The translations under genes were made by a program, and so were the position numbers. This document shows, one piece after another, positions 21,343-62,836 of a stretch of 64,000 nucleotides of DNA. Under the pieces are notes generated by a model. That model saw only the letters and a list, made by a program, of their open reading frames with translations, was not told where the DNA came from and made no database searches. The stretch's first letter is position 1. Each line of letters begins with the position of its first letter. Origin of the DNA: Leucosporidium creatinivorum (taxonomy: Eukaryota > Basidiomycota > Microbotryomycetes > Leucosporidiales > Leucosporidiaceae); NCBI GenBank assembly GCA_001600635.1, contig BCKL01000001.1:399550-463549 (forward strand), read 5' to 3'.

Positions 21343-22608
21343 CTAATCCCTCCAGACAATCTTGATGGTGAAGCGAGAGCATCCCTTTTCCATTTGGATC
21401 TTGAAGCCATCGCCTTCGTCGTGACGAAACGCGGGCGGCATCGCGGGGAGAGTGAGCTGACGAAGAGCCGGCGGTGGGTGGGGCGATACCGATGAAGGGT
21501 CTGACCAAGCTGCTACAACACCCCAACACAGTAAGAGCGCGGCCTTCCAGTCCGCGAATGTCGAGCGGAAGACTTGCATTTCCTCGATGCTCGGCGCTGC
21601 TACCTTTAGGACGTCCGTGTCTAGGACGTTGCGGTACAGGATACATAGGGCTGTACACTGTTTTATTATGCTGTAGAGGAATTTGTCGGCGGTGGTGTTG
21701 TAGAACTGAAGAGTGAGGGAGCGGAGAGAAGGGCACGCGAGTCGCGCCACATGGCACCGGGCTCGGAGAGGCGGCCTTCGAATCGCAGCTAGCTCGGGGT
21801 CGGCGGTTGCGAAGTCCAACGAGGGACGCCTCGGGAGAAGCGTGAAGCGCGGCCGAAATGAGGGCGGTGGCGCCCCCGGCTGCATCTTGCTTGCCACCGA
21901 AGCCGAAGAACTCCAGCTGGAAGGGGAAAGCGAAGCATGTCGAGCTTAAGGGAGTGTACACGCAGTCGTAGAGATGCAATCGGGTGACGCCTGAGAAGAA
22001 TAGACTGGTCAGCGAGAAATCCGCTTAGGCTCGGCGCATAGGACTTGCTTGCGAGCGATGGCGACAAAAGGATGTCTACGGGAAGCGGTCCTGCAGGAGT
22101 TCCCACGCGGACTAAGCATACGGTTTGCGCACCCGTCGAGCTCTTGAGCACATTGGCAACGGCGCTAGCTGTCAACCGTCCCGACGTATCCTGGCTGGGC
22201 TCGATGAACAGCACGGTGGTAATTGGCGCTCGCTCGGCGCTGAGGAGATATGACCTGATCGCCTTGTCGCTTGCCAGATGAACATCTTTCCACATGATGA
22301 CTTGAGCTTCTTCATTCCACTCCCGGGAGACAAGAGCGGCGCGAGCGAGGTGCACGAAGCGATCCCTTCCTTCCTGAGGCCTGAGCGACGAGCGCCGCCG
22401 GAGCTGGCGCAGGGTATGCGAGTCGCAGGATGTGGCCGATGAGCTCTTGAGGTAGCTTATGCAGCCTCTTCCTCCTCTCATTCTTGAGCTTCCTCCTCGC
22501 CGCGCCAGACCGCTTGCTCTTGCTCTTGCTGCTGCTCGTCAAAGGCTGCTCCTCCTGCTTCCCCTCCTTGTTGTCGAGGCTGAGCTTGTCGAGTGGTAGA
22601 GCTTCCAT
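21343..22608 (-). pseudogene. A': type-2 F-box-like gene, frameshifted
   Basis: Minus-strand relative of the intact gene A at 61603. It opens with MEALPLDKLSLDNKEG (22608), a basic segment (KRSGAARRKLKNERRKRLHK) and an F-box-like LPQELIGHILRLAYP. The family continuation (RDRFVHLARAALVSREWNEE) is in another frame, so the frame changes near 22355-22375, in a GGAAGGAAGGGA tract. After an apparent GC-AG intron at about 22040 (donor GCAAGTCC, acceptor ending TTCTCAG near 21980) the frame runs on as HLYDCVYTPLSS, then changes again near 21780 to reach the conserved end. At least two frame changes relative to A, so probably a pseudogene; assembly error cannot be excluded. Confidence 0.6.
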
Positions 22609-23122
22609 CTCGTAGATTACTGGTAGGTGCTTTGGCTAGTGAAGACGAGTAGCTGGCGAGCAGCGAGAAATGAGGCGAGAGGGAGAAGAGCAAAAACAGG
22701 GTCGAAGCGCGAGCCGACTTGAGCAGGAGAGGAGAGGGTCGACCGGGGTCGGGTCGAGGTGAGGTGTGGGAGGGCTCAGTGAAGCTTGGGACGAGCACTC
22801 GACCAGTTAGGGAACAGCTGCATGTTCGCAGACAGCTGTCGCTGAGCCTTGAAGCCAGCTCGGCCCTCATCATTTCCGCTCTCTCGCTCTTGAGACCTTG
22901 CAGTGCACCTCGAGGAAGGCTATCGAGGAGCAGGCGCTCTTCGTATTAGTAGCGGAGAGCTCTTTCGGCGGCTCGTACCTTGCAAAATCTAGCGAGGCGA
23001 GTGAAGCGCTCTGCTATCTTCCGCCGAGCTCGTCCTGTCTCTTCCACTCTTCGCAAAACGACAAAGATAGCGGAGACATAGCAAGTTACAGCATTGCAAA
23101 GCAACTATTCGTATCGTCCCTT
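22609..23122. other. A'-B' spacer, duplicated at 61089-61602
   Basis: 514 bases between A' and B'. Short stretches match, inverted, the A-B spacer in the right-hand block, including the tract around CTGCATGTTCGCAGACAGCTG (here about 22810-22840) and GCAGTGCACCTCGAGGAAGG. It acts as the A' promoter and B' 3' region. Conserved open frames here are echoes of the duplication, not supported genes. Confidence 0.5.
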
Positions 23123-24265
23123 CTACCTCACAAAGATAACCTTCCGCCTGAAGCGATCCACCTGCCACCCGTGCTCGGCGCCGAGCGCCTCCCACCCCTC
23201 GTTCCCGCTGTCCTGCATGATCACCTGACGCAGCGCTCCTCGCGATCCGTCCGAGAACAGTGCCCCTGCATCCTTTCTCTGCGGTGCGACGTCAAATTGG
23301 ATCGCTGATACTTGAAGGGGAAGGCGGTCGGTGACAGTGGTGGGCACGACCATGATGGCGAGGCGGAGACATCGAAGGCTAGTGCACTTGGGCAGGTCGT
23401 CGGAGAGCTCTTTGGGATAGTCGACGTCGCGCTCATCGTAGTCGGTCCAAAGCGTCAGGTGGGAGAGGGAGGCGAATTGCGGCAAGCGCAAGGAACTGTT
23501 GGCGGCGGTGGACAAGGGCAGGTGGAGATGACCAAGCGACTTCTCGGAGCATCGGAGAAGCTCCTCGAGTAAATCCTCCGCGCCTGGAGTCCTTCTCGCG
23601 CCCAGCCGAAGCGACTTGAGCTGGAACGGGAAGTTCGGCGCTTCAAAGCTGAAGTTGTCGTCGTAGTTGCGGAGGTGAAGGTGTTGCAGAAGGGGAAGAT
23701 GAGAAACGAGAGTGTCTATGTTGCTCGTCGTGTTGATTTCGAGCTGCGTCAAGTTGAGGACCCCGCTCGACAATTCGGCAACGACCGTCTCCGCCTCCTT
23801 AACATAAGCCTCGGGTAGGTGGAATGTGATGACGTTTGGGCAGATGCGAAGAAAGCATCCGATGAGATGAGGAGGGAGTTCAAGTGCCGATAATTTGGTG
23901 TCGTACCAGAGACTGAAGCCGGTGACCAGTTGGGAGAGGTGAGGAGCTCGCGCCAAGGTTTCCTCCAGCGCATCACTGTCGCTAGAGATCAGGAAACGTT
24001 CTTCTTCAAGAGGGTCGTCTCCCCTGAATACCGGCCGAGGCTTCGGATGGTAGTCGTTGACAGTGACGGTGATGTCGCGGTAGAGCGCCCGCCGAGCGAA
24101 GGGGAGGATGCTCCTCGAAGTGAGGCAGAGGTGACGGAGGGTAGTGTAGTCGAGGTCGTCGTGATCTCTGGCAGCTTCATCAATGATTTGGGCGAGTAGC
24201 TCGACAGGGAGGGGAGGCGAGGAGGGAGGAGCGGTGAGGGAGGAGGGGAGCTCGGTGGAGGGCAT
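23123..24265 (-). CDS. B': F-box/LRR-like protein, type 1
   Basis: Intronless frame of 380 residues from MPSTELPSSL. The F-box-like part (LPVELLAQIIDEAA, TLRHLCLTSRSILPFARRAL, YRDITVTV) is followed by leucine-rich repeats (LVSHLPLLQHLHLRNY; PNFPFQLKSLRLGA) and the family end HGWQVDRFRRKVIFVR. No break is visible, unlike its duplicate B at 59936. It is divergent to C' across the shared leader module. As for the family, the role as an SCF adaptor is inferred. Confidence 0.77.
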   Translation of the reverse strand: MPSTELPSSLTAPPSSPPLPVELLAQIIDEAARDHDDLDYTTLRHLCLTSRSILPFARRALYRDITVTVNDYHPKPRPVFRGDDPLEEERFLISSDSDALEETLARAPHLSQLVTGFSLWYDTKLSALELPPHLIGCFLRICPNVITFHLPEAYVKEAETVVAELSSGVLNLTQLEINTTSNIDTLVSHLPLLQHLHLRNYDDNFSFEAPNFPFQLKSLRLGARRTPGAEDLLEELLRCSEKSLGHLHLPLSTAANSSLRLPQFASLSHLTLWTDYDERDVDYPKELSDDLPKCTSLRCLRLAIMVVPTTVTDRLPLQVSAIQFDVAPQRKDAGALFSDGSRGALRQVIMQDSGNEGWEALGAEHGWQVDRFRRKVIFVR

Positions 24266-25040
24266 GTCGGTCGAGGGTGCGAGGGAGCGGTGTTGATGGG
24301 AGCTGCGGAGTAACGCGAGAGTATGAGCTACCTTGCGAAAAAGCTTGCAGCGAGCTGCTCACCTTCAGTCGAGTCGAGATGCGCGAAGGGAGAGCCGAGC
24401 TGAGGTGAGCTTCGTCCGAGCGAGCGAGATGTTCTACGAGCAGCGGGGAGCAGTGAGGTCAGCTAAAGCTCTCTCCACCTTCCTCTATAGCCCTCCCTCT
24501 CTCCCAGGCCACCTCTCCTCCCCGTCCGCCCGCTCGACCCTCGACGCGCGTGTTCTGCACTGCTGAGCTCCTCTTCTTGCTCCCCTCGGCCAGCAGCAGC
24601 ACTTGAGTAGACTCGAGACTCACCAGCAGCTTCCGAACGATCTCCCACTAGAGCAGCACGTTCTCAGCGAGCTTCCGTCCCGTCCTGAGCGCGATTCGAG
24701 AGAGCTGGTCGTGGTGTAGCTGAGCGAGTCGGCGGTGGTGGGGCGTGAGCTGTAGGTAGAGCTCGGCCGTAGTAGCTTCCTGTAGCCTCGGTCGAGAGCA
24801 GCGAACGAACGAGCAAGTTGAAGTAGGAAGCTGAGCCGTTTCGAGCTGCTCGGGCTCGTCCAAGGCCAAGGTCTCCCTTCTCGTTATTCATCGTCTCAGC
24901 TCGCTTTCTCACCTCCGACAGCTTCGAACAGAATCGCACTACCAGCTCGTACTGCTCTCCTGCTCTAAAACAGCCCGCAGTCGCTTAAGCGGCCACACGC
25001 TCCAGGCTGGCAGCGCTCTCGGAGCGAGCTCTCGCGCACT
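24266..25040. promoter_or_regulatory. B'/C' divergent promoter with shared leader module
   Basis: 775 bases between divergent starts. Homologous along most of its length to the B/C spacer 59145-59935, and over about 550 bases to 11167-11700 and 7342-7990. In the minus direction (toward B') it carries a conserved tract ending in CTGCTG and then donor GTGAGTCTCGAG, consistent with a spliced 5' leader exon; the nearby sequence ALRTGRKLAENVLL can be read through it but is followed by a stop here. The C' side holds the C' leader. Confidence 0.55.
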
Positions 25041-25866
25041 ATGGCGTCGCTAGACATCGAGCTACAGCTGCTTACTCCTCGCTTGACTGCTCTGATCCTC
25101 GACTGGTTAGACAAGGATCACTTTGTCTGGTATCGAGAGCTGGAGGAGATCTACAGCCATTTCTCGGAGGCGGACTGGGTCACCAACCACAGCCTCATCA
25201 CCGCCCTTGACGGCGACCTCAGGGTCTTATCAAGTTACCTGCTTTGGGCGCCCCTCTTACCGCGGAGTCTCTGGTCGCAGGAGTTGATCAAGAGGGTTGA
25301 GCTGCGCCGGAGGCTCTGGGTTGCCTACGACCAGGCGGTCGACGGCAATATGTGTGAGTCTCCAAGGAAATGTGCTATCGCACTTTGTACAAGCTGATGG
25401 AGCTTGTCTCAACAGGTCTCAGGATGCTTCGAAACCAGTACATCAAGCGGCGAACCGCCGAAGCCAACGCTGAGGCAACAGCAGAGGCGAAGCTGCACGG
25501 CTGTACGCCCAAGATAGACCACGACGTGAAGCGGATGATGAAGCGGCTACATCTACTACCCGTCAAGCTCGAGCTTACCCTGCCAGAACGAGCACACTTC
25601 GCTGGTAAGCTCGACTCGAACTCGTTCGCTCGGAGCTCGAGAGCTGACCCCCTCTCGTCATTGCAGCCCTCGGCATCAGCTTCTCGAGGTACAGCAGCTT
25701 GACCACTTCATCCGACGATGACGAAGACTCGGGCTCTGGCGACTCTAGCTCGGAGGACACCAGCTCGGGCGACTCGGACGACTCAGCTTCCTCAGCCGAC
25801 GAAGAAGACGACAACGAGCCTCTACCTCCCTACTCGCCTAGACTAGTAGAGCCTGCATCCCAGTGA
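25041..25866 (+). CDS. C': small acidic-tail protein of unknown family
   Basis: Three exons (25041-25353, 25416-25604, 25667-25866) give 233 residues. I do not recognise the family. The N-terminal 100 residues look alpha-helical (LTPRLTALILDWLDKDHFVW, YRELEEIYSHFSEADWV). The middle is basic (QYIKRRTAEAN, DHDVKRMMKRLHLLPVKLEL). The last 60 residues are almost all Ser, Asp, Glu and Gly and end with EPLPPYSPRL. The LPPY there fits the (L/P)PxY motif bound by WW domains of Nedd4/Rsp5 ligases; this is an inference from motif knowledge. The duplicate C at 58320 is intact with the same exon plan and the same LPPY. Confidence 0.72.
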
Positions 25867-26122
25867 GGTGGAGCCGGTGAGCTCGTTGGCAGGGCACGAA
25901 GGAAAGCAGCACAGGGGAGGAGCAGGACTTAGCGAGCGCGTTGACTGCGTGGTAGTAGATCGTCTACGGTGGCAAGCATTGATTATAGGCGCCTGAAGAC
26001 CCTTCTCTGCGAAGAGAGATAGGTCTGGACTCGCACAGACGATCGCCGAGTCGAGCGAACCTCGCCCGCGCCTCTCCCTCCCTCCCTCCTCGTCTTGCTC
26101 GCTCGCCTCGCTGCTCGCCTCA

Positions 26123-28927
26123 ATGCACTCGCGAAAGCTAACTACGCTCAGGTCGCTTCCTTACCATGTTCTCACGCTCGACTACCCCATCACGAGGGCA
26201 AGCTCTGCTCCCCTGCAGCTAGGTCAGCGCCGAGAGCTGACCTTCGGCTCTACTCGGCTAGGGCTACCCGTGGCATTGGTTCGGGCCGTTGATGATTCTC
26301 GCGAGTATTCCCGTGATTGCTGCATTAACCGTCCTGAATGGTGAGTAACCTTCAGCTACGAGTGAGGCAGCTGAGCTGAGATTTCTCAACCTCAGTCTTC
26401 ACCGTCGGCACCGAGACTGTCGCTTACGAGAGCTCCGACTACCACACCGGCTCGTCCTGGCTGTGAGTGGTCGCCTATAGTACTCGAAGCCTGGTCGCGC
26501 TGAGACGAGTACTACAGCTTCGACCTTGCTGGACAGTCGGCGCCGACCGTCTGCGATCTGGGCTCCACGCCGTACGGTACCGAAGGTGCCGTACTGCTCC
26601 GGTTGAAGCTCGTTTGTACCCGCCTAGAGGTAGTGGTGCGGTACAGGTACAAGGGGGTCTAAAATGTACCACTGCACCACTGTACCGCGGGATCGAGAGA
26701 GCTCGGCGAAGGTCGCTCGGCGGAGGCTCAAATGTCATATACTGGCGAGCTAGCTTGCTTCACCGGCCAGCTTTGAGGCCCAGATAGCCTAGTGGTCTAT
26801 TCTGTAGACTTCGAGTATTTTGTTGGACGTTTTCGAGAGTGTTTTTGCCTGGCCAAAAGCTTTTTGCCTCGTTCGCCGGCTCGTGAATCGAAGCGCTGAG
26901 CATCTTTAATTCACTACAAGACTCGGTTAACAAAAGAAATGCATTGCAGTGCAGTAGCGAACAGCATTTTCTTCGCGGTCAACCTTTGAATACACCTTTT
27001 TCACGCCTCCCAGGCAGCGCCGAGCTCGGACCTCGCCCTCTCCGCCCATTTTCTCGGGGTACAGGTGCACTCTGTACCCGTACCGACCTGTACCGGGTAC
27101 ATGCGTCTTTTAACCGGTACGGTACGGGTACAGAGGGTCGGAAAGTGTATGTTCCGTACCGTGTGGAGCCCAGCTGCGATCCCGCTCGGTTCAGGATCGG
27201 TACGTCGCTTCCTAACCCCAAGAGGCGCAGCTGATCCGTCCGAGGTACAGGAGACAGCCTTCGTACCAACTTCGGGGTCTTCGACTATACCCTCATCGCC
27301 ATTAACGGAGCCAACGCTTCGAAGACCTCCGTTTGGGAGCTCCCGACTCGGCGAACCGCCGATAATCCTTCTTGTGAGTCGATTGCAATCGTGCTCGACC
27401 GGCATGCTGATCGCTCGCCTCTCAACTGAAGATAGCTTCGAATACAAGGGAACCGATCTCTCGAAGAGTTGCTACTCGATCCGAAAGACAGACAACATCG
27501 AGCGGCGCTATGTCTCCCTCGTCGCCGATCTTGATACGTATACAGTGCAAGGGGAGGTGAGCATTCGGCGGTGTACCAAATGATAGTTTCTACGGAGATC
27601 TTACATTCCAAAACTGCAGATCAGGTTCTCTTGTCTCCTCGACGACGGAGGGATTGCTCGGCTTCAGCTCTCGCGCTTGAGCCGTCCCGGGCTCCCCCAG
27701 GAACGACTACAGCAGCAGGCGCTCGGGTCGACGAAGGAGACGCTACAACACCTTTACTCGAGGCCTAGTGGACGGTTTGGCGAACGATCTTCTCGACAGC
27801 ATGCAGCTAGCGTTGGAGGGAGCGAACGGGACCTTCCTGTCGCAGGTCGCTTTCACCCGCGCCGAGATGCTCTGCCCTGACTGGAGGTCCGACTTCTTCC
27901 CCACCCACGACTGCCCGCTCAACCTCAAACGAGCGGAGCTCAACGACAGCTCGAGCTTGGCAACTCTCGTCGACCGAGATCAAGTTCGCTTTCTCGACCT
28001 TCTGTCGATAGAAGACGCATCTGCAGAACTTCGTACAAGTGTATCGAACTACATCGCGGCGCTCTACCTCGGCAACTTACTCGACCTAGGCTTATGGTCG
28101 ACCAATCCTCTTCTTTCCCCCGACCTCTTCAACGGCACTTTCCTCTCCAACGGTGCGTTCCGCGCTGTCGAGGAAGTACTCGAGACTGACAACGATCTTT
28201 GCGACCCTTAGATGCTCTGACCACTGCGCTCGCTCAACGCCCTCTTCCGGAGCCGGTTCGCTTCAACGACTCAACGTTTCGGCCCGCCCTCTACCTCTAC
28301 AACACCACAGAGTCGGTTGTTGACTGGCTCAGGAGCCCGCCAACATCTTTCGTCAACGACACCCTCAATCCTGAATCGCACCCAGTCTGGGGTAAGCGGC
28401 TACAGCTCGCTGCTAGCTCGGCGCTGATCTCTTCTTCCCTTGCCCTCTTCCCTCAAGCAGCCACAAGCTACATCTGCCGTCGAACGCGCCTGAAGAAGCC
28501 TCTCGGACTCATCGTCGGTGAGTAGCAGTTCTCTCTCCCGTCCCGTCAAGTCAGTCGACAGCGCTGAGCTCGGCGATGTCTTCTCGCTTACACAGCCGTG
28601 CTCGTCGCCGATGCCTCCCTCTTCGGCCTCATTTGGGGCGTCGTCATGTACCTCCCCACCAACATCGCTCAGCGCCGAGGTGAGCTGTCGCGGATCTCCC
28701 GCAGGGCCGCAAGCTGACCCTTCTCGGCGCAGACAACACCTGCTCGGCTTGCGGCTCGAAGGCTGCTGGAGCGACTGCGCCTGCTGCTTCTTCGCCTTGG
28801 GGTGAGAAGTCCCATTCGGCTCCCTCATCGTTCGCGCCGCGGACTGACGCTGCCTCTCCCTCTGCACAGCTCCTTCCTCGCCTCGACAGCCGGCACATCA
28901 GCCTCGGCGAAGCTCGACGATACTGAC
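26123..28927 (+). pseudogene. D': multi-span membrane protein, split by DNA element
   Basis: Paralogue of D (56047). It starts MHSRKLTTLRSLPYHVLT; a GC-AG intron (donor AGG|GCAAGC near 26205, acceptor CGGCTAG near 26270) leads to one span, GYPWHWFGPLMILASIPVIA, then an outside region (FTVGTETVAYESSDYHTGSS). The next exon (from 26518) is invaded at 26559 by a 615-bp element; beyond it the exon resumes at CDPARFRIG. Later exons give DSLRTNFGVFDYTLIAINGA, FEYKGTDLSKSC, NYIAALYLGNLLDLG and a last span, LVADASLFGLIWGVVMYLPT, with a CSACG tail. Near 27690 the frame also changes by two bases relative to D. Probably inactive. Family function unknown. Confidence 0.6.
26559..27173. mobile_element. 615-bp non-autonomous inverted-repeat DNA element (hAT-like size of target duplication)
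   Basis: Ends are TGGGCTCCAC at the left and GTGGAGCCCA(G) at the right: terminal inverted repeats of 10-11 bp. An exact 8-bp direct repeat CTGCGATC flanks it (26551-26558 and 27174-27181). Both subterminal regions are packed with GGTAC/GTACC units in both orientations, like transposase-binding repeats, while the centre (about 26800-27000) is A/T-richer than its surroundings. No transposase frame is present. An 8-bp duplication fits hAT; if C is counted in the repeat the duplication is 7 bp, so the superfamily is not certain. Removing one repeat and the element restores the host exon, a clean footprint of insertion. Confidence 0.82.
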
Positions 28928-46591: not shown

Positions 46592-47113
46592 CCCGCGAGA
46601 TTGGTGAGACGAGACGCAAGCGAGACGAATTGGCGGAGGTCAAGCTCAAGAAACGGGGCTCGTTCGCTAGCTGACTCCTCAGTCCTGACCCCTGAGAGTG
46701 AAGCTCAGCTACAGGCGAAGCAGAGCCACTCTCAAGAGCCACAGCATACACGTACAGCATCTCAGCAAGAGCGAGTGAACCCTCTCCGGATGTTTAACAA
46801 TCCCCGAAGTGAGCGCCGAAGCTCGGCGTTAGCTTGTTGCCCGATCAGAACGCTCTGGGGACGAGGAAGCGACGTTGACACGCGTATATACTACGAGAGA
46901 TATAGAGTGTGGCAATTAAGAGGCTATATCATCCAGGTGAGGTGGGGAGACCGCCGACGAGTCGCGATCCGACGCTGAGATCGAGGACCGTATCAGGCAA
47001 CGCCCAGTTGCTTGGCCGACAGTCTTGCTTGTCTGAGGGAGAGAAAGAACGGTCAGCTCCATCCGCGAGCGATAGGTACCGACTGGTACGCCAAAGGAAG
47101 ACGTACTCAGCTA
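46592..47113. other. Spacer between tandem PLD-like copies
   Basis: 522 bases: promoter of the full-length PLD-like gene and 3' region of the truncated copy. A TATATACTAC tract near 46880-46900 is the only A/T-rich spot. No gene seen. Confidence 0.3.
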
Positions 47114-48309
47114 TCAGCACCACTCGGCGTCCAAGCGCGGTCGCTTGGCTTTGGGTTCGGTGGCGGTAGATTTGCGAGCTGTACGACGAGGAAGAGGGTC
47201 AGTTCTCACACCGCAATGTTCACACAACCCGAGACCCTCATACCCACCCTGCGCATCTCCCTCTTTGACGACAGCGCCCGATTTGTCGACTTGAACGAAG
47301 CGCCCAGGGAGAGGGTGGTCGTGGAGAGGCAAAGGGATCGAAGGGGTTGGAGCATGCGAGGGGTCGAGAAGCTTCCAAGCCGCCTTGTACGCCGCCTTAG
47401 CCGCATCGCCCGCCTTCTCGGCGGAGGCATCCTTACCACTCTTGGGCTTCTTCGACCAGCTCAAGCGAAGGCCAGTCCCTCCCTTCCCAGCTCCTCCACC
47501 CTTAGCGCCCAAGAACTCCTCGTGCAAGACTCGATTGCCGACCTGCACGAACTCGGCGCGCTTGTTGCGAAGGATTTTGACCTCGACCGGCTTTTCGGCG
47601 ATGCCAGTGTCGGCGCGAGCGAGGAAGATGGGAGCGGCAGAGCTGTAGGCGAGGGCGGATCCAAGCAAGGTGTTCCAGGTGATGTTCTCGTCGTAGCCGT
47701 AGAGCGAGGTGCAGAGCTGAGGACGGGTGAGATTAGCCCTCGAAGGGGAAGCGCCGAGCAAGAGAGAACTCACGGCGTTGAAGGCGTCAGAAGCGTAGCG
47801 AGCGAGCGTAGCCTCTCCCGCGAAGTAGTAGTACCTGTTTGAGAGCCATTAGTTTCAGCTTAGAGCCCATCAGCGCTGCTCCGAGGCCCTTTTTTCTCAA
47901 TCACAGCGACTCACTGGTTGCTCCTGCCTCCGAGCGGCGCATCTCGCCCGAGAGCTACGCTACAGCCTTGGCTGACCGCCTCTGCTACAAAGCTTATCCA
48001 ATCGTTCTTGCCCGAGTGCCACGCTCCCGTGTCGAAGAGGGCTCGCTCGCAAGCCGTCGAGCTGCTGGTGGTGCGGAGCGAGCGAACGGTGGGCGCCAGA
48101 GCTTGCGGGAGGTTGCTGTGGGATGTTAAAAAGTCATTAGACAGTGTAGAGATGTACTTCGAAGCTTCAGCGCACCTGATTACCCTCGCGGCAAAGTCGA
48201 ACTGGGTCTCGCTGTCGAGGGGCTCGAGGAGGAGGCGCTTCTGAGGGTCGAGGAGGGGCGCAGGCGTGGTGGAGCAGGTGGAGCCGTAGCTGGAACGTCT
48301 CTGCTCTGC
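47114..48309 (-). CDS. Truncated tandem paralogue of the PLD-like gene
   Basis: Starts MAEQRRSSYGSTCSTTPAPL (48309) and closely follows the N-terminal half of the gene at 43041-46591 exon for exon: LLEPLDSETQFDFAARVIRC, WHSGKNDWISFVAEAVSQG, NITWNTLLGSALAYSSAAPI, WKLLDPSHAPTPSIPLPLHD and RFVQVDKSGAVVKEGDAQ. After the last shared intron it has only ARKSTATEPKAKRPRLDAEW-C and a stop, so the PLD-like module is absent. The reading frames are open and the splice sites kept, so it may encode a stand-alone N-terminal domain rather than being dead. KAKRPRLD could serve as a nuclear localisation signal (inference). Confidence 0.65.
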
Positions 48310-48858
48310 CATCGTTCGAGATTGACGAGAAGAGGTGAAGCGAAGCGAGTGGTGGGAGACCAAGCAGGGCGGGCGCTGCTCGTCAGGTGAGGGGTCGTGA
48401 CTCCTGAAGGTGTAGCTGGTCGACTAAAGTCGGCTCTCGTCTCAATCGACTACAGATAAAGCCCTCGGGAAGGGAGTGAGGGCAGGAAGAGCGCTCTGTT
48501 GTCCTCGAGCAGACGCCGAAGCCAGCGCCGAGCTCGCTATCCCTGCTTCTTCGCCGGCTGCGAGGCAGACACTCTCGTCGAGCTAAGGTACATCTCAGAC
48601 GTAGCTCAAATTCATAAGCATGGCTTCGCAGAGTCTAGTCGAGCGAATGCTGGTACGGAGCTCGTTCGGCGAAGAGGACAAGGCGACGAGCGAAGCCGAC
48701 GACGACGAGAGAGAAGGCTCAAAGACGGGCTCGCAAGGCAGCCTACTCTCCATCGCAGGAAGCTCTGATTCAGACTCAATTGCTCGGCTGCCAGTGTACA
48801 GCTCCCATCCCGCCTTCCCCTGCCTCGTCATTATCGCCGAACCGCTCCGCTGAGTTCG
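48310..48858. other. Intergenic 549 bases
   Basis: Promoter of the truncated PLD-like copy (minus strand), then a region containing a possible small plus-strand gene (48620-48853, listed separately). No repeat or RNA gene recognised. Confidence 0.3.
48620..48853 (+). CDS. Possible small acidic/Ser-rich protein
   Basis: Frame of 77 residues starting MASQSLVERMLVRSSFGEED, with a Ser/Asp/Glu/Gly-rich middle and a short hydrophobic end (FPCLVIIAEPLR). The composition looks coding and no stronger frame overlaps on the other strand, but there is no recognised family, and promoter or splice evidence is lacking. It ends six bases before the end of the minus-strand F-box gene. It may be chance. Confidence 0.25.
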   Translation: MASQSLVERMLVRSSFGEEDKATSEADDDEREGSKTGSQGSLLSIAGSSDSDSIARLPVYSSHPAFPCLVIIAEPLR

Positions 48859-50176
48859 CTACCGCCTGCCCCTCCAGCGTGCGCAACTAGTCAGCATAGA
48901 GCATGACTTGCTGCTCATTAAGCCTGCCTGCACAAGTAAAGGCAAATCTGTCAGCTGAGGGTGGAGGCGCGAGGAAGAAGCAGACCTGCCGGTTCTAGTC
49001 TCAAGCTCGACTCCTCGGCGCCGGCACTCGGCCTCTAATCCCTCAGGAAGCGATGATGGCACCGCCGACTCAAACTGTAGCACGAGCTGCTCCAGTTTGG
49101 AAAGCGCCGGTAGCTCAAGTTTGAGCCACTCGACAATCGAGGGAGCGAACTGCTCGTTCACATAGACCTTGAGGCCTGAGAGGTGACAAGGGAGCATGGC
49201 GAGAAGGTGGGGTTCCAGTAGAGATGTAGCAAAGTAGCTCAGGCATTGGCATTGGCGGAGAAGAGGTTCGAGGGCGAGGACTCGCGAGGGAGATGCCGAG
49301 TAAGCGCCAATATGGATATTGAGCTTCTCCAGCTTGTTGGGCGTGTCGGGGAAGGCAATGGGAATGGACTGTATCGGTAGAGGGGTGTTTCCTATGAAGA
49401 TCGTGGCCGATCTCGCCGTTGCAGCGAGGAGATGGGCGACGAAAGCGAGCGGCTTCATTTCGCCTCCCCAGGCGTCGATGCGGAGGTGGTCGAGCGTGAA
49501 CGGGAATACCAGAGAGCTGATCGAGCCACACCCTGCCGCGTCCAGCTTGAAGCTGAGCGGCTCGTAAAGGTGGAGGGTTTCGAGGTCTGGAGCGGCGAGC
49601 AGCAGATCAGCGAAGTACTTGCTCGGCGGTCGGCGGGACTCTCCGCTTAAACCTGAAGCGGCTTTCCAGGAGCACGAAAGGGTCCAGCAGATTGATCTTG
49701 TCCAAGATAAGATGGCGTAGGACGCAGACTCCAAGTACGTCGCCGGCCAACTTTCCATCGAGGCGATCCGCTCCGCAACCCTCGAGCATGAGGATGGGGG
49801 TCGGCACCATCTTCCCTCTGCTGAAGAGCAGAAAGCTCTTGAGGCCTCGATCAGAAGTCAGGCTGGCCCTCTTAGTGAGGTGTAGACGCGAGCGGACGTT
49901 CCAACGCCAGCAGACGAGGGAGGTGTTGCAGAGGAAAGAGCGGCAGGCTTGCGCCTCGCGAGCCGTGACCGATGCGAGGAAGTCAGAGTCGTACCCGAGG
50001 TCGATGATGTAGTCCATGATCTCCTCCGGCAGCCTCGGCGGCTTCTCCGGGTCGATTTCGAGTCCCGCGAATTGAGCGTCGAGTAACGCCTGCCTCTCCT
50101 TCTTGAGCTTCCTCCTCGCTGCACCGGAGCGCTTGCCGTGGGCTGTAGGCTGTTGTTGAGCTGGCTGTGCTTCCAT
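48859..50176 (-). CDS. Type-2 F-box-like gene, apparent frame change
   Basis: Third type-2 member, separate from the duplicated blocks. It opens MEAQPAQQQPTAHGKRSGAA (50176) with the basic segment RRKLKKERQALLDAQF and an F-box-like LPEEIMDYIIDLGY. In the family an intron follows this half; here CTTCAG|GTTTAAGC and CGCTCCAG|ACCTCG look like its donor and acceptor, but joining them leaves the second half (DLETLHLYEPLSFKLDAAG, then LLRQCQCLSYFATSLLEPHL) one base out of frame. Either a small indel has broken it or another splice site is used. The conserved end (CRRRGVELETRTG) is followed by a possible last intron at about 48995-48935. Confidence 0.55.
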
Positions 50177-50713
50177 TGCGAGAGGTGTTGGAGCTGAGAG
50201 CGACGAGTGATGAGAAGCGAGCGAGTGGGAGGAGGACAACAGACGGAGGGGGGCTTGAGCGAGAGGGCCGAGTGAGATGAGAGGGGCGTCGGATGTAGTC
50301 TGTTGCCTTGGAGCGTGCAAATCTGTAGATACGTACTTCAAGCGACGCTCATCGTCGAGGTGAGCCCTGTGCTAGCCCTCGCTGTCGTGGCAAGCTCGCG
50401 CCGAGCTTCGCAGACCTCATCGCCGAGCCTTTCTGCCTCGCTTCGTCTCGCGCGCAAAAAGTCTGAACGATTATTCTGTGTGCATTTGTCAAAACGAGAG
50501 AAGAAGAGGAAAAGAGCGGGGAAGAAGGAGGGAAGGGGAATGGGGAAAGTAATCGACTGAAAAGGGGAGGGAAGAGAGCCAAAGAAAAGAAGAGCCTGCG
50601 AGGCGAAAAAAGAAGGGTGGAGAGACCTAATAACGAACCGACACCACTACGCGCACCACACCTACCGCCGCCGCCCGCGACGCACGGCGCTACTCGTCTT
50701 CGAGCGCGAGCAT

Positions 50714-55650: not shown

Positions 55651-56046
55651 AGCGGCCGAACGAGTCGGCGAGAGGAGGAGGACTCGGGGCGCCTGAATAC
55701 TGTAGCCTAGAACGAGGCAGATGGCAAGCTAATGAGGCTGAGAACTGCACTCGAACGATCTGACCGACTGGCCGACGGCAAGCGAGTGAGCTCTCGCGCG
55801 CCAGCCTGCTCCGTCTTCGCCGCTCTCGACCGAGCCCTGACCTCGCGCTGCGTTCGACGAAGCTACGAGGCTATATATTAGTAGCTATCAAGTCTGCTAG
55901 CACGTCCTCGGCTGCAGGTACAGCTCGCCGACAAGAAACTGGCTCGGTTCGAAGCATGCCGGCTGTCGAGGCGAGAAGCTGGGGAGAAGAAGGGGTGCGT
56001 CAGTCATCGACGCCAGCTACAGAGCAGACGCTTGAGGCACCTCATC
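55651..56046. other. Convergent intergenic region, edge of right block
   Basis: 396 bases between the SEC66 3' end and the D 3' end. The last about 100 bases beside D (GCCGGCTGTCGAGGCGAGAAGC) match sequence at the end of D' near 28870-28895, marking the outer limit of the duplication. No gene. Confidence 0.4.
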
Positions 56047-58051
56047 TTATGCCGAAGAAGCAGCAGGTGCAGTCCCTCCATTGGCACCAGCGCCGGCGGT
56101 CGACCCGCAAGCCGAGCAGGTGTTGTCTGCGCCGAAGCGGATCAGCTCGCCGTCAAATCAACTGAGACGAGAAAAGCTTCACCTCGTTGCTGAGCGATGT
56201 TGGTGGGAAGGTACATGACGACGCTCCAGATGAGGCCGAAGAGAGAGGCGTCGGCGACGAGAACGGCTGTAAAGCGCGAAGACAATCACCGAGAGGCTTT
56301 TTGAGGCGCGTTCGACGGCAGGTGTAGCTGACGGCTGCGACGGTGGAGATTAGCGAAGAGTCGGCTCTGTACATGTCTCTCCCGAAGCGCAGAACGAGGT
56401 TACTGCCCGCCGTAGAGCTCACCCCAAGTGGAGTTACCGAGGCGCTGGTCGCTGATGTATTCTTCTCGCGATCTGAGAGTGTCTGCCCAGGAGCTTCTTT
56501 GCCAGTAGATGTCTTGCGCGGGGGCGGTGGGCGTCACGCCGAGCCGCCCCAGTCCAGGGTAGGGCGCTTGCTGTAGCGAGGCCGACAGAGCGTCTGATGG
56601 CGCCGATGCAGAAGAAGCGTCAGCCAAGCTCTTCGACGGCACGAGGATATAGAGACGACTGACTGTTGGCGAGAATTGTGCGATTGAAGGTCTCGGCCGA
56701 GAGAAGAGGATTCCTCTCCCAAGCTCCCAGGTCGAGGAGACTCGCCAAGTAGAGGACTGAGACGTAGTTCCAGAGGCTGATCCCCGTCCCAGCTGGAAGA
56801 GCTTTGACCTCCGATATCTCGAACCAGAAGCGTCGACTCCCCGTGATGCGCCGAAACTGGACTTCCTGCAAAAAGCCAGGGTGTACACCCTCCGGTGGAT
56901 AGCCTTCTGAATAGGAAGACGGGGATCCCATTGTTCCCACTGCTTCCACTCACGCCAGATAGTCATCGCTGTCGGGCGAGAAGGCGAGTCGCAGGCTTTG
57001 GAGGAGGTCGAGGGCTAAGGAATCGACGAGCCTCCTCGCCCGAAGGTCGCAGTAGGGGGCAGCACCTGGAATGTCGCTGCTGTAGCTTCCGATCTCGCTG
57101 TGGAAAGGCCGAGTTGAGTGTGAGAGAGAAAGACGAGCGACACCTCCTTCGGCGAGGTTGCAGAAGAACTGAACCTGCACACAGTTGCGCCATCGTCATT
57201 GACAAGAACGGTGAGAGCTTTTGAAAGTGTATTCACCTCTCCCTGCACCGTGAAGGTGTCGATGTCGGCGGCGAGGACAACGTTTCAGGAAAATGTCTCC
57301 CGACCGAACTCGTCCGTGACGTGACAGCTGTTCGACAAGTCGGTGCCGCTGTACTGGAAGCCGTCTGCAAGGTTGATTCAATACGAAGACTCTCCTGAGC
57401 TAGACTTGGACGGACTCACAGGAAGGATTGCGGAAAGAGCCTGAAGTCGGCGGCTCGGCGCTCGCGGCTCTTCCTCCCCCAGTGCCATTGACCGTTGAGT
57501 GTAGTCGAAGGAGGCGAAGTGAGGGCGAAAAGTTTCTCCTGCGCGTGTGCCCGTCAGCTCAGCTCACGAGGCTCTCTCAAGCCAGCGAAGCAGCCCACCG
57601 ATCCTTAGCCGAGCGGGGTCGCAGACGGTAGGCGCCTGCTGCCCAGCGAGATCCCACCTGTAGAGCTCTTTGTGAGCTCAACATAAAGGAAGAGGCATTC
57701 ATAGATATCTCACAGCCAAGTCGAGCCATTGTGATACTCGGAGCTCTCGTAGGTAATAGTCTCAGTGCCGACGGTGAACACTGCGCGCCGAAAAGGTCAA
57801 CTCACGTTTCGCTCGAAGCTGAAGGTTACTCACCATTCAGCACTGTCAATGCAGCAATCACAGGAATACTCGCGAGTATCATCAACGGCCCGAACCAGCG
57901 CCAAGGGTAGCCCTAGCCGAGTCGAGTCGAAGGTCAGCTCTCGGCGACCACTGAGCTGCAGGGGGGCAGAGCTTGCCCTCGTGATGGGGTAGTCGAGCGT
58001 GAGAAAATGGTAAGGAAGCGACCTGAGCGTAGCTAGCTTTTGCGAATGCAT
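56047..58051 (-). pseudogene. D: multi-span membrane protein, damaged
   Basis: Minus strand from MHSQKLATLRSLPYHFLTLD (58051) to TAA at 56047-56049 after CSACGSTAGAGANGGTAPAA. As in D', a GC-AG intron precedes the first span GYPWRWFGPLMILASIPVIA. Outside region: FTVGTETITYESSEYHNGS, APTVCDPARLRIGETFRPHF. Later exons: FQYSGTDLSNSCHVTDE, RARRLVDSLALDLLQSLRLA, NYVSVLYLASLLDLGAWER and a last span with SLFGLIWSVVMYLPTNIAQQ. Compared with D', the frame shifts just after FASFDYT (near 57500), and an in-frame TGA occurs at 57285-57287 in the exon starting FQYSGTDL. No insertion element is present. Probably inactive; sequencing error is possible for either. Confidence 0.6.
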
Positions 58052-58319: not shown

Positions 58320-59144
58320 TCACTCGGATGCAGGCCCTACTAATCTTGGCGAGTAGGGAGGTAGAGGCTCGTCGTCGTCGTCTCCCTCGGTCGAGGAAGC
58401 TGAATCGTCTGAGTCGCCCGAGCTGGTGTCCTCCGAGCCAGAGTCGCCAGAGCTCGAGTCTTCGTCATCGTCGGATGAAGTGGTCAAGCTGCTGTACCTC
58501 GAGAAGCTGATGCCGAGGGCTGCGATGACGAGAGGGGGTCAGCTCTCGAGCGCCGAGAACGAGTTCGAGTCGAGCTTACCAGCGAAGTGTGCTCGTTCTG
58601 GCAGGGTAAGCTCGAGCTTGACGGGTAGTAGATACAGCCGCTTCATCATCCGCTTCACGTCGTGGTCGATCTTGGGCGTACAGCCGTGCAGCTTCGCCTC
58701 GGCGTGGGCTTCGGCGGTGGCTTCGGCGGTTCGCCGCTTGATGTACTGGTTTCGAAGCATCCTGAGACCTGTTGAGATAAGCTCCATCAGCTCGTGCAAA
58801 GCGCGATAGCACGCCTCCTTCGAGACTCACACATATTGCCGTCGACCGCCTGGTCGTAGGCAACCCGGAGCCTCCGCTGCAGCTCAACCCTCTTCGTCAA
58901 CTCCTGCGACCACAGACTCCGCGGTAAGAGGGGCGTCCATAGCAGGTAACTTGATAAGACCCTAAGGTCGTAGTCAAGGTCGGTGATGAGGCTGTGGTTG
59001 GTGACCCAATCCGCCTCCGAGAAGTGGCAGTAGATCTCCTCGAGCTCGCGATACCATAGAAAGTGATCCTTCTCCAGCCAGCCCAGGATCAGAGTAGTCA
59101 AGCGAGGAGTGAGCAGCTGTAGCTCCATATCTAGCGAAGCCATA
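58320..59144 (-). CDS. C: small acidic-tail protein of unknown family
   Basis: Duplicate of C' (25041) with the same three-exon structure, from MASLDMELQLLTPRLTTLIL (59144) to TGA at 58320-58322. By my manual alignment the first exon differs from C' at about 12 of 104 residues and the second at only 3 of 63. The Asp/Glu/Ser tail varies in length but keeps EPLPPYSPRLV. Both copies being open, with mostly substitutions, contrasts with decay in all other cassette pairs and argues that the protein is under selection. Function unknown; the LPPY motif could recruit a WW-domain ligase (inference). Confidence 0.72.
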
Positions 59145-59935
59145 GTGAGCGGGAGCTCGTTCCGAGAGCACTGGGAGTTGGGAGCTTGTGGGCGCTGAAG
59201 CGAGTGTGGGCCGATGTAGAGCAAAAGAGCAGTACGAGCTGGTAGTGCGGTCCTGTTCGAAGCTATCGGAGGTGAGAAAGCGAGCTGAGACGATGAATAG
59301 CGTAGAAGGGAGACCTTGGACTTGAACGAGCCCGAGCATGCCGAGCAGCTCGAGACGGCTCAGCGTCCTACTTCCAACTTGCTCTTTTCTTCGCTTCTCT
59401 CGACTTCGACTACAGGAAGCTGATATAGCCCAGCTTGTATACAGCCCAGACCCCACCACCACCAACTCGCTCAGCTACAGCAGGGCCAGCTCTCCTCGCT
59501 CGACTCGCGCTCAGGACGGGACGGAAGCTTGCTGAGGACGTGCTGCTCGACTGGGAGATCGCTAGGAGGCTACAGGTGAGTTTGGAGTCTACTCTCGTGC
59601 TGCTCCTGGTCTAATGGAGCGAGAGAAGGGCGACAGCGGTGCAGAACACGCGCCTTGAGGGTCGAGCGGGCGGATTGGAAGGGGGAGGCGGGCCGGGACG
59701 GAGGGAGGGCTACAGGTACAAAGTCGGAGGGCTTCAGCTGACCTCACTCTCTCCTGCTTGGTAGAAGGCACTGCTCTCTCGGACAAAGCTCAGCTCGACT
59801 TGCTCGGCTCTCCTCCGCGCTCCTCGACTCGACTGAAGGTGGGCAGACCGCTGCAAGCCTTTTCAGAATCTAGCTAATTTTCGTTTAGAGCTGCACAGCC
59901 CTCACCCTCGCCGCTCCCTCCCACCCTCGACCGAC
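59145..59935. promoter_or_regulatory. C/B divergent promoter with shared leader module
   Basis: 791 bases, inverted relative of 24266-25040. On the plus strand a conserved tract (TCGCTCAGCTACAGCAGGGC near 59468, then GGAAGCTTGCTGAGGACGTG) ends at CTACAG and a good splice donor GTGAGTTTGG (59577), consistent with a first exon for B. Through this tract one frame reads LALRTGRKLAEDVLLDWEIA without a stop, the only copy of the module where it stays open. Acceptor-like TTTTCAG lies near 59870, before the B ATG. Confidence 0.5.
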
Positions 59936-61088
59936 ATGACCTCGGCCAAGCTCCCCTCCTCCCTCGCTTCGCTGTTCTCCTCGCCACGCCTCCCTGTCGA
60001 GCTACTGGCCCAAGTCGTCGACGAAGCTGCTGGAGAGTGCGACAACCTCGACTACACCACCCTCCGTCGCCTCTGCCTCGCCTCAAGGAGCATCCTACCC
60101 TTCGCTCGCTCGGCGCTCTACCGTGACATCTCCATCACCTTTCGACGACAAGGATTACGGCACTGCCAACGCAGCCGCATCTGCTCTCGAAACCACTGCG
60201 GGGGAAGCTTTGTGGCTCGTGAATCATGGAGAGCGCCTCGAAGCAATGCTCGGACGAGCTCCGCATCTTGCGCAGCTGGTGGCGTGCCTCACCCTCAATC
60301 TCCTTAACCGAGGCGCATCTGCTATCCATTTCCCTCGCAGAACAATTCAACACTTGTTCCGCTGCTGCCCCAAACTCACTGCAGTGCGCGTGCCCGACAC
60401 CTACCCTGAGGAAGCAGAGGCCGTTCTCGCCGAGTTGCTCGAGATCCAACCCAACCTGGTTGAGCTTCAACTCGACTTCGCACCGAACCTCACCCCTCTA
60501 CTCCTCTGCCTGCCTCATCTTCGGCACCTTTACGTTGGCCTTTCCTCCACCCTCGGTCCAATGGACAAGCACGCCACGCTCCCCTTCAGGCTAGCATCTC
60601 TCCATCTCACGACACCCGGCAGCGACGAATCTATGGACACAGTGAGGAAGATCATCCAGTGCTCCAGAACTACGCATCATCATCTCGTCGCGGACGTCTG
60701 GCTGCTCGCCCAACTTTGGCCCCTCCTGCCGGAGCTCCTTATCCTTACCAGCCTCGAAATGGACCTTTGGGGCATACTGGACAACCGCGCTATGTTCGCC
60801 CTATTCGATCAGACACTGCCAACGTGCGCAAGTCTTAGATCACTTCACGTCGTCGGCTCGACGTTGCCCTCTTCGGACATCGCTCCCCTCCCGCCTCAAC
60901 TATCGGCTCTCTACCTTGAGCACGCGGTAGAGACGGGAGTCCTTCGCTCAATACTTTCCGACGATTCGCGGGGAGCGCTCCGGCGCGTAGCGATGGGCAT
61001 GAGTGCAGACGATGACTGGGAGGAGCTCGGCGAAGAGCATGGCTGGTCGGTTGAGCGCTACGGGAAGAAGGTCGTGCTCGTGAGATAG
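59936..61088 (+). pseudogene. B: F-box/LRR-like gene, single frameshift
   Basis: Duplicate of B'. It starts MTSAKLPSSLASLFSSPRLP with an intact F-box region (LPVELLAQVVDEAA, RSILPFARSALYRDISITF). Immediately after, at about 60137-60143 (ACCTTTCGACGAC), the frame must move by one base for the rest of the protein (DDKDYGTANAAASALETTAG onwards) to be read; from there the frame is open to the normal end HGWSVERYGKKVVLVR. One extra C in TTTCGAC explains it. No intron fits. Either a recent pseudogene or a sequence error; the first frame alone would give a 123-residue F-box-only product. Confidence 0.7.
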
Positions 61089-61602
61089 GAGTGAAGAGAT
61101 GGATGCTTGCTTTTCTTCGCTGTAACATGCTTTGACTCGCTGTCTGCTGTCGCGTTGAGCGAAGCGAAAGAGGGACGGCGAGCTCGGCGATGCACTGTGA
61201 AGCGCTCGATTCGCCAACCAAGATCTTGCAGCATGCAAGCCGATCTCGAGAAGCTCTACAGTAGCATTTCAAGAGCGGCTGCTGGCTGATAGCCTTCCTC
61301 GAGGTGCACTGCAAGGTCTCAAGAGCGAGAGAGCGGAAATGATGAGGGCCGAGCTGGCTTCAAGGCTCAGCGACAGCTGTCTGCGAGCATGCAGCTGCCT
61401 CCCAACTGGTCGAGTAATTGTTCAAGCTTCTCCAAGCCCTGCTGCACTTCACCTCGACCCGACCTCGCTCGACCCTCTCCTCTCCTGTTCAAGCCAGCTC
61501 GCGCTTCGACCCTGTTTTTGCTCTTCTCCCTCTCGCCTCATTTCTCGCTGCTCGCCAGCTACTCGTCTCTACTAGTCAAAGCACTTACCAGTAATCTACG
61601 AG
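61089..61602. other. B-A spacer, duplicated at 22609-23122
   Basis: 514 bases, inverted relative of the A'-B' spacer, with near-identical tracts at 61300-61420 (GCACTGCAAGGTCTCAAGAG; CAGCTGTCTGCGAGCATGCAG). A leader of A. Open frames here recur in the other copy only because of the duplication. Confidence 0.5.
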
Positions 61603-62836
61603 ATGGAAGCTCAACCGCTCGACCAGCTCAGCCTCGACGACAAAAAGGGAGCGCCGGAGGGGCACCCCTCGACGAGCAGCAGCAAAAGCAAGAGCAAGCG
61701 GTCGGGCGCGGCGAGGAGGAAGCTGAAGAAGGAGAGGAGGGAGAGGCTACCCAAGCTACCTCAAGAGCTCATTGGCCACATCCTCCGAGCCGCCTACCCC
61801 ATCCCAGCCTTTGACACCGCCAGCAAAAATCAGACCAGCGCCGCTTCAGAGACCGCTCGCTATAGCTTCCTTTGCCGAGCGGCGTTGGTCAACAAGACCT
61901 GGAGCGAGGAGGCGCAGCGACTGCTCTGGGGGCATGTCAAGCTGTCCAGCCCGGCGCACGCTAGGTCGTTCTTGCTCAGCGCCGAGAAGGCGCGGCATAC
62001 CAGCTTCCTCTGGTTTGAGCCCACGGAGGTCGAAAGCTGTCCAGGCGCGCTAGCCTTGAGGGTACTTCAGGCGCTCCGAGGTATCCGAGAGCTGCACCTC
62101 ATTCGCCTCGGCACGCGCAATGCACCGCTACCCGACATTTGCCTCTGCTCCTCGTCCTTCTCCGGTAAGTCGCCTACACAAAAGTCAAGTGCGAGCTCGA
62201 GTAAGCCACTCGCTAATTCCGTCTGCGTCTTGCGCAGGGCTCAAGCTACTCGAATACCGTGGCAACTTCTGCAAAAGGAGCGGCCGACCTGGAAACCTCA
62301 ACCTGTCCTTTCGCCTCGACATCTTTCGCTACCTCGACGTCGCTTGGCTACCAAGATATGGAGTTGACAGGCTTGTGCCGGCGCTTCTCAAGTCGCGGCC
62401 TCGTACCCTCACGCTGGGGTTTATCGACCCGAGTGGATCGGCGTCGTCGTCCATGCCAGATCTTCCGCTTCTCCCGGCGGCTCGAACGCTAGAGTACCGC
62501 ACTACTCACTGGGAACCCGACAGCTGTTTTCACAAGGTGCTGGCTAGCTGCACAAAGCTGGCGATTCTCGGCTGCAACTGGATCGACCGCCGAGCTCTCC
62601 TCGCCATATCCCCAACTTTGCTCGACCTCACCGTGCGCGGGAAGGAATTCCCTGAAGCTGTGTATCGCGACTTGATGGAGTGGATGGACGAGAAGGACGA
62701 AGACGGAAGCTCTCCATCGCCGTGGCTCGAGGCGGTCAGCCTGCCCCTCCCCTCGGCCCGGCTCAGGTGGATCAAGCGTGCCATTGAAGCTCTGTGTCTC
62801 CGTCGAGACATCGAGCTTGCGTGGAATGAAGAGTGA
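61603..62836 (+). CDS. A: F-box-like protein, type 2
   Basis: Two exons (61603-62164, 62238-62836), 386 residues, open throughout. N-terminus MEAQPLDQLSLDDKKGAPEG, then a strongly basic run KRSGAARRKLKKERRERLPK that could be a nuclear localisation signal, and an F-box-like LPQELIGHILRAAYP with YSFLCRAALVNKTWSEEAQR. The rest consists of leucine-rich repeat-like strands (LKLLEYRGNFC; LPLLPAARTLEYRTTHWE; VLASCTKLAILGCNWIDRRA). It ends CLRRDIELAWNEE. Relatives: A' at 21343 (broken) and the copy at 48859. SCF adaptor role inferred from the family. Confidence 0.75.

What the first reader, a model, noticed from the sequence alone, without database searches (positions are those of the whole stretch)
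21343..62836. Inverted duplication of a four-gene cassette (A-B-C-D) about 27 kb apart
Two type F-box genes, an acidic small protein and a membrane protein occur twice, in exact mirror order, with matching spacers (514/514 and 775/791 bases). The arms flank conserved single-copy genes. Such a cassette, copied as a unit, may be an adaptive or selfish locus; a large inverted repeat also permits inversion of the 27-kb centre.
Basis: partly seen in the sequence, partly recalled or inferred. Interest (0 to 1): 0.8.

Follow-up and report, generated by a model that had tools for sequence, protein, structure and literature searches.

The report
Fungal F-box genes swapping recognition parts
The mirror-image gene set is real, but it is one pair within a larger clustered gene family whose control regions and front ends are shared among copies while the part likely to recognise target proteins is very different, and some copies have swapped that part.

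Summary
The inverted arms exist: order B-A-C-D mirrored, spacers 514/514 and 775/792. They are not a simple copied unit. The window lies in a 27.7-Mb genome, most likely fungal. Contig C1:301-630 kb carries 14 close copies of F-box-like gene A and 7 A->B pairs with 514-548 bp spacers. In 13 of 14, a constant module (about 600 bp upstream DNA plus F-box) precedes an LRR body near random at silent sites: 4-fold identity 0.72 in the F-box, 0.37-0.44 in the LRR, 0.31 random. The largest fall in identity lies at codon 55-79 in 63 of 66 pairs. Two pairs reverse this: 373k/482k share the LRR (dS 0.07 against 0.36 in the F-box); 329k/410k share a 160-nt 98% tract between 68-71% flanks. AU tests reject one history. 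The arms are mosaics of different ages. Best reading: an SCF receptor array diversified by ectopic gene conversion and module exchange; targets unknown. F-box evidence for these copies is weak by profile. Inversion of the centre: untested.

The parts
23123..24265 (-). gene A, left arm: intronless F-box-like + LRR protein, 380 aa, intact
   Evidence: open frame; this copy has no Pfam hit; in the family F-box-like in 3 of 7 members, LRR_14 in 1 of 7
59936..61088 (+). gene A, right arm: same family, frame break near 60139 (or sequencing error)
21343..22608 (-). gene B, left arm: constant N-terminus, F-box-like start, LRR-like body; frame change about codon 80; exon ends not determined
   Evidence: F-box-like E 0.018, LRR_At5g56370 E 0.0033, both below cut-off
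61603..62836 (+). gene B, right arm: F-box-like, LRR-like body in two overlapping frames (intron or frame change)
   Evidence: PF12937 E 0.00099, LRR_At5g56370 E 0.031, below cut-off
25041..25863 (+). gene C, left arm: small protein with acidic Ser/Asp tail; intron GTGAGT..CAACAG at about 25354-25415 (inferred)
   Evidence: dS 0.13-0.25, dN 0.03-0.06 against the right copy
58323..59143 (-). gene C, right arm
27535..28522 (+). gene D, left arm: N-glycosylation sequons, probably secreted or membrane protein (inferred by eye); exon ends not determined
56290..57232 (-). gene D, right arm, divergent body; exon ends not determined
24050..24850 (-). constant module P, left: about 600 bp upstream DNA + F-box codons of A
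   Evidence: matched over 700-905 bp in 12 of the 13 other close A copies; in 486k over 136 nt only; trees; upstream part without codon phase
59345..60149 (+). constant module P, right
22379..23200 (-). constant module S, left: end of A, spacer, B promoter and first B codons
61009..61799 (+). constant module S, right; nearest to the 482k copy (86%)
23250..24050 (-). variable LRR module of A, left
60150..60957 (+). variable LRR module of A, right
25916..26467 (+). C-D spacer block shared by the arms; a fragment also lies at C1:369.8 kb
28569..28895 (+). conserved block at and beyond the end of D, partner 55957-56293
160..1326 (+). further A copy (C1:399.7 kb), intact
6220..7341 (-). further A copy (C1:405.8 kb), intact
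9985..11166 (-). further A copy (C1:409.5 kb), 2 stops; shares a 160-nt LRR tract with the 329k copy
49733..50179 (-). distant B-like F-box gene between the arms

Best explanation
The arms are two members of a clustered, multi-copy F-box/LRR array on one contig of a (most likely fungal) genome. Each gene joins a constant module (upstream DNA plus F-box or N-terminal codons) to a variable LRR module. Ectopic recombination, mainly gene conversion between copies tens to over a hundred kb apart, keeps constant modules alike and sometimes moves LRR segments or whole LRR bodies between copies; many copies decay. The proteins most likely act as SCF substrate receptors: the F-box holds Skp1 and the LRR picks the target, so exchange gives new target specificities under a common promoter and ligase interface. 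Shown: modular conservation, conflict between module histories, bounded near-identical tracts, a large gene family. Inferred: the F-box and LRR folds, SCF action, selection for target diversity (for instance against parasites, mobile elements or non-self cytoplasm), and the roles of C and D.
For: P block: matched over 700-905 bp in 12 of 13 other close copies; in the tree of 15 copies 67-87% identity; upstream part without codon phase. Silent sites: 4-fold identity 0.72 in the F-box, 0.37-0.44 in the LRR, random 0.31; L/R dS 0.37 against 1.3, Fisher p 2e-5. Reverse case 373k/482k: dS 0.36 in the F-box, 0.066 in the LRR (Fisher p 1.4e-5); LRR 91-99%, upstream 61-89%, 65-74% at nt 1325-1475, then 85-88% further down. 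329k/410k: 160 nt at 98.1% between 67.9% and 70.5%, longest exact run 113 nt, 0 of 2000 permutations. AU: P block rejects 373k+482k (p 6e-4) and 329k+410k (p 2e-7), which the LRR joins at 100/100; the LRR rejects 301k+329k (p 3e-9), sisters at 100/99 in P. The largest drop lies at codon 55-79 in 63 of 66 pairs; it is at least 0.25 in 63 of 66, not the same 63. B: in 21 of 21 pairs the first two 75-nt steps of the gene are 72-96%, and steps ending at nt 450-1425 are 28-65%. LRR columns: 32 of 225 are at least 80% identical, 21 of them leucine. A nearby tandem duplication, the one control, shows the ordinary reverse: body 64-95%, flanks 36-61%. F-box by kinship: 9 of the 65 A places and 9 of the 82 B places overlap an F-box-like match over cut-off (read by eye). 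F-box-like matches over cut-off in the genome: 128 (150 of 330 candidates scored).
Against: None of those 128 matches lies in C1:290-640 kb: the A and B copies themselves fall below Pfam's F-box cut-off (left-arm A no hit; 3 of 7 members, best E 0.0036), and PDB profile hits to TIR1 and SKP2 are weak (E 0.38 and 0.62). No structure could be predicted. dN/dS in the one recent LRR pair is 0.61, above the F-box (0.22) but below 1, so positive selection is not shown. Only two LRR-sharing pairs were seen among 66 (12 copies), so LRR exchange may be rare. The clades for the AU tests were chosen after seeing the sequences. In the run test six further pairs also had 0 of 2000, with runs of only 18-32 nt near the more conserved C-terminus. 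7 of 14 close A copies are broken, which also fits drift. LRR alignments at about 30% amino-acid identity are uncertain. The 486k copy lacks the upstream block.
Confidence: 0.66

Rival explanations
1. A single A-B-C-D block was duplicated in inverted orientation; since then F-box, promoters, spacers and C were held by purifying selection while LRR, B and D bodies evolved fast under diversifying selection, without exchange.
For: Mirror order and spacers; C under purifying selection (dN/dS 0.21-0.46); B promoter identity 0.81-0.86 between -140 and -20 and 0.92 across the start codon, more than the rest of the spacer (0.59-0.79).
Against: Silent sites inside one gene differ several-fold between F-box and LRR, in both directions depending on the pair; tree conflicts; the same modules in further copies; the right spacer block is nearest to the 482k copy.
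Confidence: 0.12
2. Neutral birth-and-death (genomic drift): F-box copies multiply, convert each other and decay without benefit; the LRR diversity is old and barely constrained.
For: 7 of 14 close copies broken; remnants at 298k, 332k, 408k, 485k, 520k; F-box-like places clustered on several contigs.
Against: 7 of 14 copies keep matches of 374-388 codons without a stop although silent sites are near random; second codon positions and leucines remain constrained.
Confidence: 0.17
3. Part of a mating-type or incompatibility region, kept diverse by balancing selection with suppressed recombination.
For: Large inverted repeats and diverse recognition-like genes can occur in such regions (recalled).
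Against: STE3 is on C25 and the only Homeobox_KN hit on C24, not on C1; contigs are not chromosomes, so linkage is not fully excluded.
Confidence: 0.04
4. The inverted arms are an assembly artefact (haplotypes or a misjoin).
For: A 20-N gap lies 332 bp from the left arm's given start; C35 and C40 seem to share an end.
Against: Arms differ by 15-25% even in aligned blocks and strongly in bodies, and their outer flanks do not align.
Confidence: 0.03

Closest known systems
Nematode F-box families (Caenorhabditis)
   Same: Large, fast-turnover F-box families; conserved N-terminal F-box and faster C-terminal target part. PMC8665587 reports dN/dS peaks over 1.5 at the C-terminus in 73 of 95 C. elegans paralog pairs, while all whole-gene ratios but one are below 1, and proposes a pathogen arms race (passages seen). 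Clustering: PMC5041008 (passages seen).
   Different: Here upstream non-coding DNA is part of the constant module and LRR segments move between copies; 'gene conversion' occurs 0 times in the held text of PMC8665587. Positive selection is not shown here.
Plant S-locus F-box (SLF) genes
   Same: F-box arrays shaped by duplication and genetic exchange (Kubo et al. 2015, seen only as a reference title in PMC12033343).
   Different: No S-RNase partner was sought here; plant SLFs use F-box-associated domains, not LRRs (recalled).
FBXL proteins (SKP2, TIR1)
   Same: F-box followed by LRR (recalled); weak profile hits to TIR1 and SKP2.
   Different: E-values 0.38 and 0.62, not significant; the family is very divergent.
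Fungal NLR allorecognition genes (Podospora het-d/het-e)
   Same: Recognition genes in fungi with high internal conservation (title and abstract start of PMC12222747); constant effector plus variable recognition part (recalled).
   Different: No NACHT or WD40 match in the A members scanned; LRR bodies rather than repeat units vary.

Membership tests
SCF F-box/LRR substrate receptor | F-box domain | tested here: inconclusive
   PF12937 in 3 of 7 intact A members, best E 0.0036; B right arm E 0.00099, 19.3 bits against cut-off 24.3; none of 128 over-cut-off matches is in the cluster, but 9 of 65 A places and 9 of 82 B places elsewhere overlap one
SCF F-box/LRR substrate receptor | LRR domain after the F-box | tested here: inconclusive
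   LRR_14 in 1 of 7 (E 2.7e-5); 21 of 32 conserved columns are leucine; weak PDB LRR hits
SCF F-box/LRR substrate receptor | Skp1 binding and target ubiquitination | not testable with these tools
   needs biochemistry
Gene-conversion mosaic family | module trees in conflict | tested here: met
   AU p 6e-4 and 2e-7, 3e-9; clades chosen after seeing the data
Gene-conversion mosaic family | bounded near-identical tracts inside divergent copies | tested here: met
   329k/410k 160 nt at 98.1%; 373k/482k about 1 kb
Simple inverted segmental duplication | one age along the arms | tested here: not met
   dS 0.13-0.25 (C), 0.37 (A F-box), about 1.3 (A LRR)
Simple inverted segmental duplication | arms are each other's nearest relatives in all parts | tested here: inconclusive
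   spacer block p-AU 0.048 against, P block 0.144, LRR 0.16; gene C arms are nearest to each other
Mating-type locus | pheromone receptor or homeodomain gene alongside | tested here: not met
   STE3 on C25, Homeobox_KN on C24
Plant-type S-locus | RNase partner gene | not tested
   no search made

The most novel reading that the evidence does not exclude
A fungus runs a constant/variable receptor system: F-box scaffolds with shared promoters receive LRR target-recognition modules by directed or selected gene conversion from a reservoir of intact and broken copies, giving a germline-diversified intracellular recognition repertoire that marks non-self proteins (parasites, mobile elements, other cytoplasms) for degradation.
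Probability: 0.25. Interest if true: 0.8.

Novelty: new variant of a known kind. Interest (0 to 1): 0.52.

Why it matters
Fungal recognition repertoires are mostly discussed through NLR genes (recalled). An F-box array in which recognition modules are swapped on fixed ligase scaffolds would be a second, degradation-based route, and its LRR modules give concrete baits for finding what such arrays recognise. It also gives a clean case for measuring ectopic conversion, because constant and variable modules alternate within one gene.

Tried and rejected
Unit duplication without exchange: rejected for gene A by silent-site and tree conflicts. Mating-type locus: no support. Hidden coding in the upstream block: no codon phase and at least 3 stops in each of six frames of the four copies checked. 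Inversion of the centre: untested, since the tool states that the genome has no relatives here; the five longest exact arm matches are 99, 77, 72, 69 and 60 bp. Positive selection: only one recent LRR pair could be measured, dN/dS 0.61. Generality: C1 copies at 9k, 31k, 80k, 145k and 152k share blocks of 165-659 bp (70-81%), mostly upstream of the genes, but the 80k/145k pair aligns over 1.6 kb, and 188k matches only one copy, over 74 bp. On C40/C35 two of three C40 B-like genes share a short 84-85% 5' block with C35, while other pairs align through the gene. So the pattern is clearest in the A/B cluster. The first LRR tree used a wrong frame for the right-arm copy; one search replaces it. One search stopped with an error after printing the phase table; one search completed the rest. 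Paper searches for fungal F-box expansion, conversion or shuffling; no such paper seen in the listings (one search listed 20 of 264), in this library only.

Rows dropped: 332k from the P tree (short); 554k (several breaks), 486k and all remnants from codon and LRR analyses; 12 copies remain, 66 pairs. The two LRR-sharing pairs were left out of the 4-fold counts. Control for paralog behaviour: one tandem pair only.
Full report
Observation. The two arms exist. Self-comparison of the window gives collinear inverted blocks of 849, 2462 and 346 aligned bases at 80, 85 and 75% identity. Aligning the arms end to end, in steps of 100 columns, shows strong alternation: B body 39-57%, A/B spacer with B start 83-96%, A end and adjoining spacer 62-65%, A LRR 43-55%, A F-box and upstream DNA 69-88%, gene C and its flanks 76-98%, D body 39-68%, D end 66-87%.

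Context. The window is C1:399550-463549 of a 27.7-Mb genome in 63 contigs. It has a STE3-type receptor and what looks like a short intron in gene C; I infer a fungus, probably a basidiomycete; no call names the organism. A protein search with gene A gives 65 places at E<=0.001; 14 genes on C1 between 301 and 628 kb are close (E<=2e-32 for at least one piece). Gene B gives 82 places at E<=0.01, of which seven with E<1e-24 all lie on C1 directly downstream of an A copy. The seven spacers are 514, 514, 548, 515, 514, 521 and 528 bp, so the equal spacers of the arms are a family trait. C has the two arm copies and three distant relatives, one of them (35%) head-to-head with the A copy at 482k. D has the arm copies and two distant ones, the weaker at E 0.006.

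Constant and variable modules. Both arms, used as blastn queries, match two blocks in the other copies: an upstream-plus-F-box block (700-905 bp in 12 of the 13 other close copies; 486k only 136 nt of it) and, in A->B pairs, an A end/spacer/B start block; the LRR body is not matched. In the tree of 15 copies, two of them remnants, the first block is 67-87% identical and nearly star-like. Its upstream part has no codon phase, the F-box part has. At 4-fold sites with the same first two bases, identity is 0.72 in the F-box, 0.37-0.44 in the LRR and 0.56 at the C-terminus, with the two LRR-sharing pairs left out; random third-position identity is 0.31. Selection on protein cannot by itself make silent sites of one part of a gene several times more divergent than those of the next; the parts have different histories. 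A tandem duplication at 45.5-48.4 kb serves as the one local control and behaves the usual way, body 64-95%, flanks 36-61%.

Exchange. Two pairs reverse the pattern. 373k and 482k, 109 kb apart, are 91-99% identical through the LRR but 61-89% upstream and 65-74% at nt 1325-1475, rising again to 85-88% beyond; silent divergence is 0.36 in the F-box and 0.066 in the LRR (Fisher p 1.4e-5). 329k and 410k share 160 nt at 98.1% inside LRRs otherwise 68-71% alike; the longest exact run, 113 nt, was reached in 0 of 2000 permutations. Six other pairs also gave 0 of 2000, but with runs of 18-32 nt near the more conserved C-terminus. The trees disagree accordingly: the LRR joins both pairs at 100/100, the upstream/F-box block rejects them (p-AU 6e-4 and 2e-7), and 301k+329k, sisters there (100/99), are rejected by the LRR (p-AU 3e-9). 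These clades were chosen after seeing the sequences. A tract bounded on both sides between copies tens to over a hundred kb apart is the usual mark of gene conversion. In 63 of 66 pairs the largest fall in identity lies at codon 55-79, about the end of the F-box; the exceptions are the two LRR-sharing pairs and 626k/406k. I infer that conversion spreads the constant module up to the point where the LRRs are too different to pair.

The arms. By module the arms have different ages: C dS 0.13-0.25 with dN 0.03-0.06, A F-box 0.37, A LRR about 1.3. The right spacer block groups with 482k (95/92), and L+R is weakly rejected (p 0.048). For the promoter/F-box block and the LRR, L+R is undecided (p 0.144; 0.16). 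An old unit duplication overwritten later is compatible with this; an untouched unit is not.

Function. The F-box assignment is weak by profile: 3 of 7 intact A members, best E 0.0036; left-arm A itself no hit; B right E 0.00099, below cut-off. The genome has 128 F-box-like matches over cut-off (150 of 330 candidates scored, six-frame search); none lies in C1:290-640 kb, but 9 of the 65 A places and 9 of the 82 B places on other stretches overlap one (read by eye), which supports an F-box origin through kin. LRR support is one LRR_14 match of seven, weak LRR_At5g56370 matches in B, leucine-rich conserved columns (21 of 32) and weak PDB hits that include TIR1 and SKP2. 7 of 14 close copies keep full frames, so the variable bodies are maintained as protein. 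For scale: a Rhodotorula paper has a table row for F-box-like reading 20, 34.6 and 13.1, which I take as species value, genus mean and spread (PMC10662464, passages seen); a Microbotryum paper lists 3-43 PF00646 proteins across ten genomes (PMC4469406, passages seen). Methods differ, so the excess here is approximate. The mechanism I favour is an SCF receptor array with exchangeable target-recognition modules; target class and any benefit are inferred.

Novelty. Conserved F-box with a faster target domain is known from nematodes (PMC8665587, passages seen), and exchange among F-box genes from plant S-loci (title seen as a reference in PMC12033343). Constant modules that include about 600 bp of upstream DNA, alternating with exchanged LRR modules in a fungal array, I did not find in the listings of eight paper searches. 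I rate it a new variant of a known kind.

Noticed in passing
window 45522-46645 and 47245-48365: Ordinary tandem duplication (78%) with open frames on the minus strand; its core is at 64-95% and its flanks are diverged; used as a control. The one plus-strand frame tested, 47012-47839, has no Pfam match.
   Followed up: partly
C35:223003-229013 and C40:40-6044 (G000): B-like hits with identical or nearly identical scores at a constant offset: the contigs seem to share an end of up to about 19 kb, an unmerged overlap or a recent duplication.
   Followed up: no
C1:8-9k, 30-32k, 80k, 145k, 373-375k, 406-408k, 485-486k: A-like genes often stand head-to-head about 0.9-1.2 kb apart, suggesting shared two-way promoters; in the arms gene C takes the partner place.
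   Followed up: partly
window 20992-21011: 20-base N gap, 332 bp from the given start of the left arm.
   Followed up: no
window 41891-41985 (-): tRNA-Leu (taa) between the arms.
   Followed up: no
C1:480154-481113: At the 482k copy the constant spacer block ends at about the B start codon, and no B body was found in the 960 bases held beyond it.
   Followed up: partly
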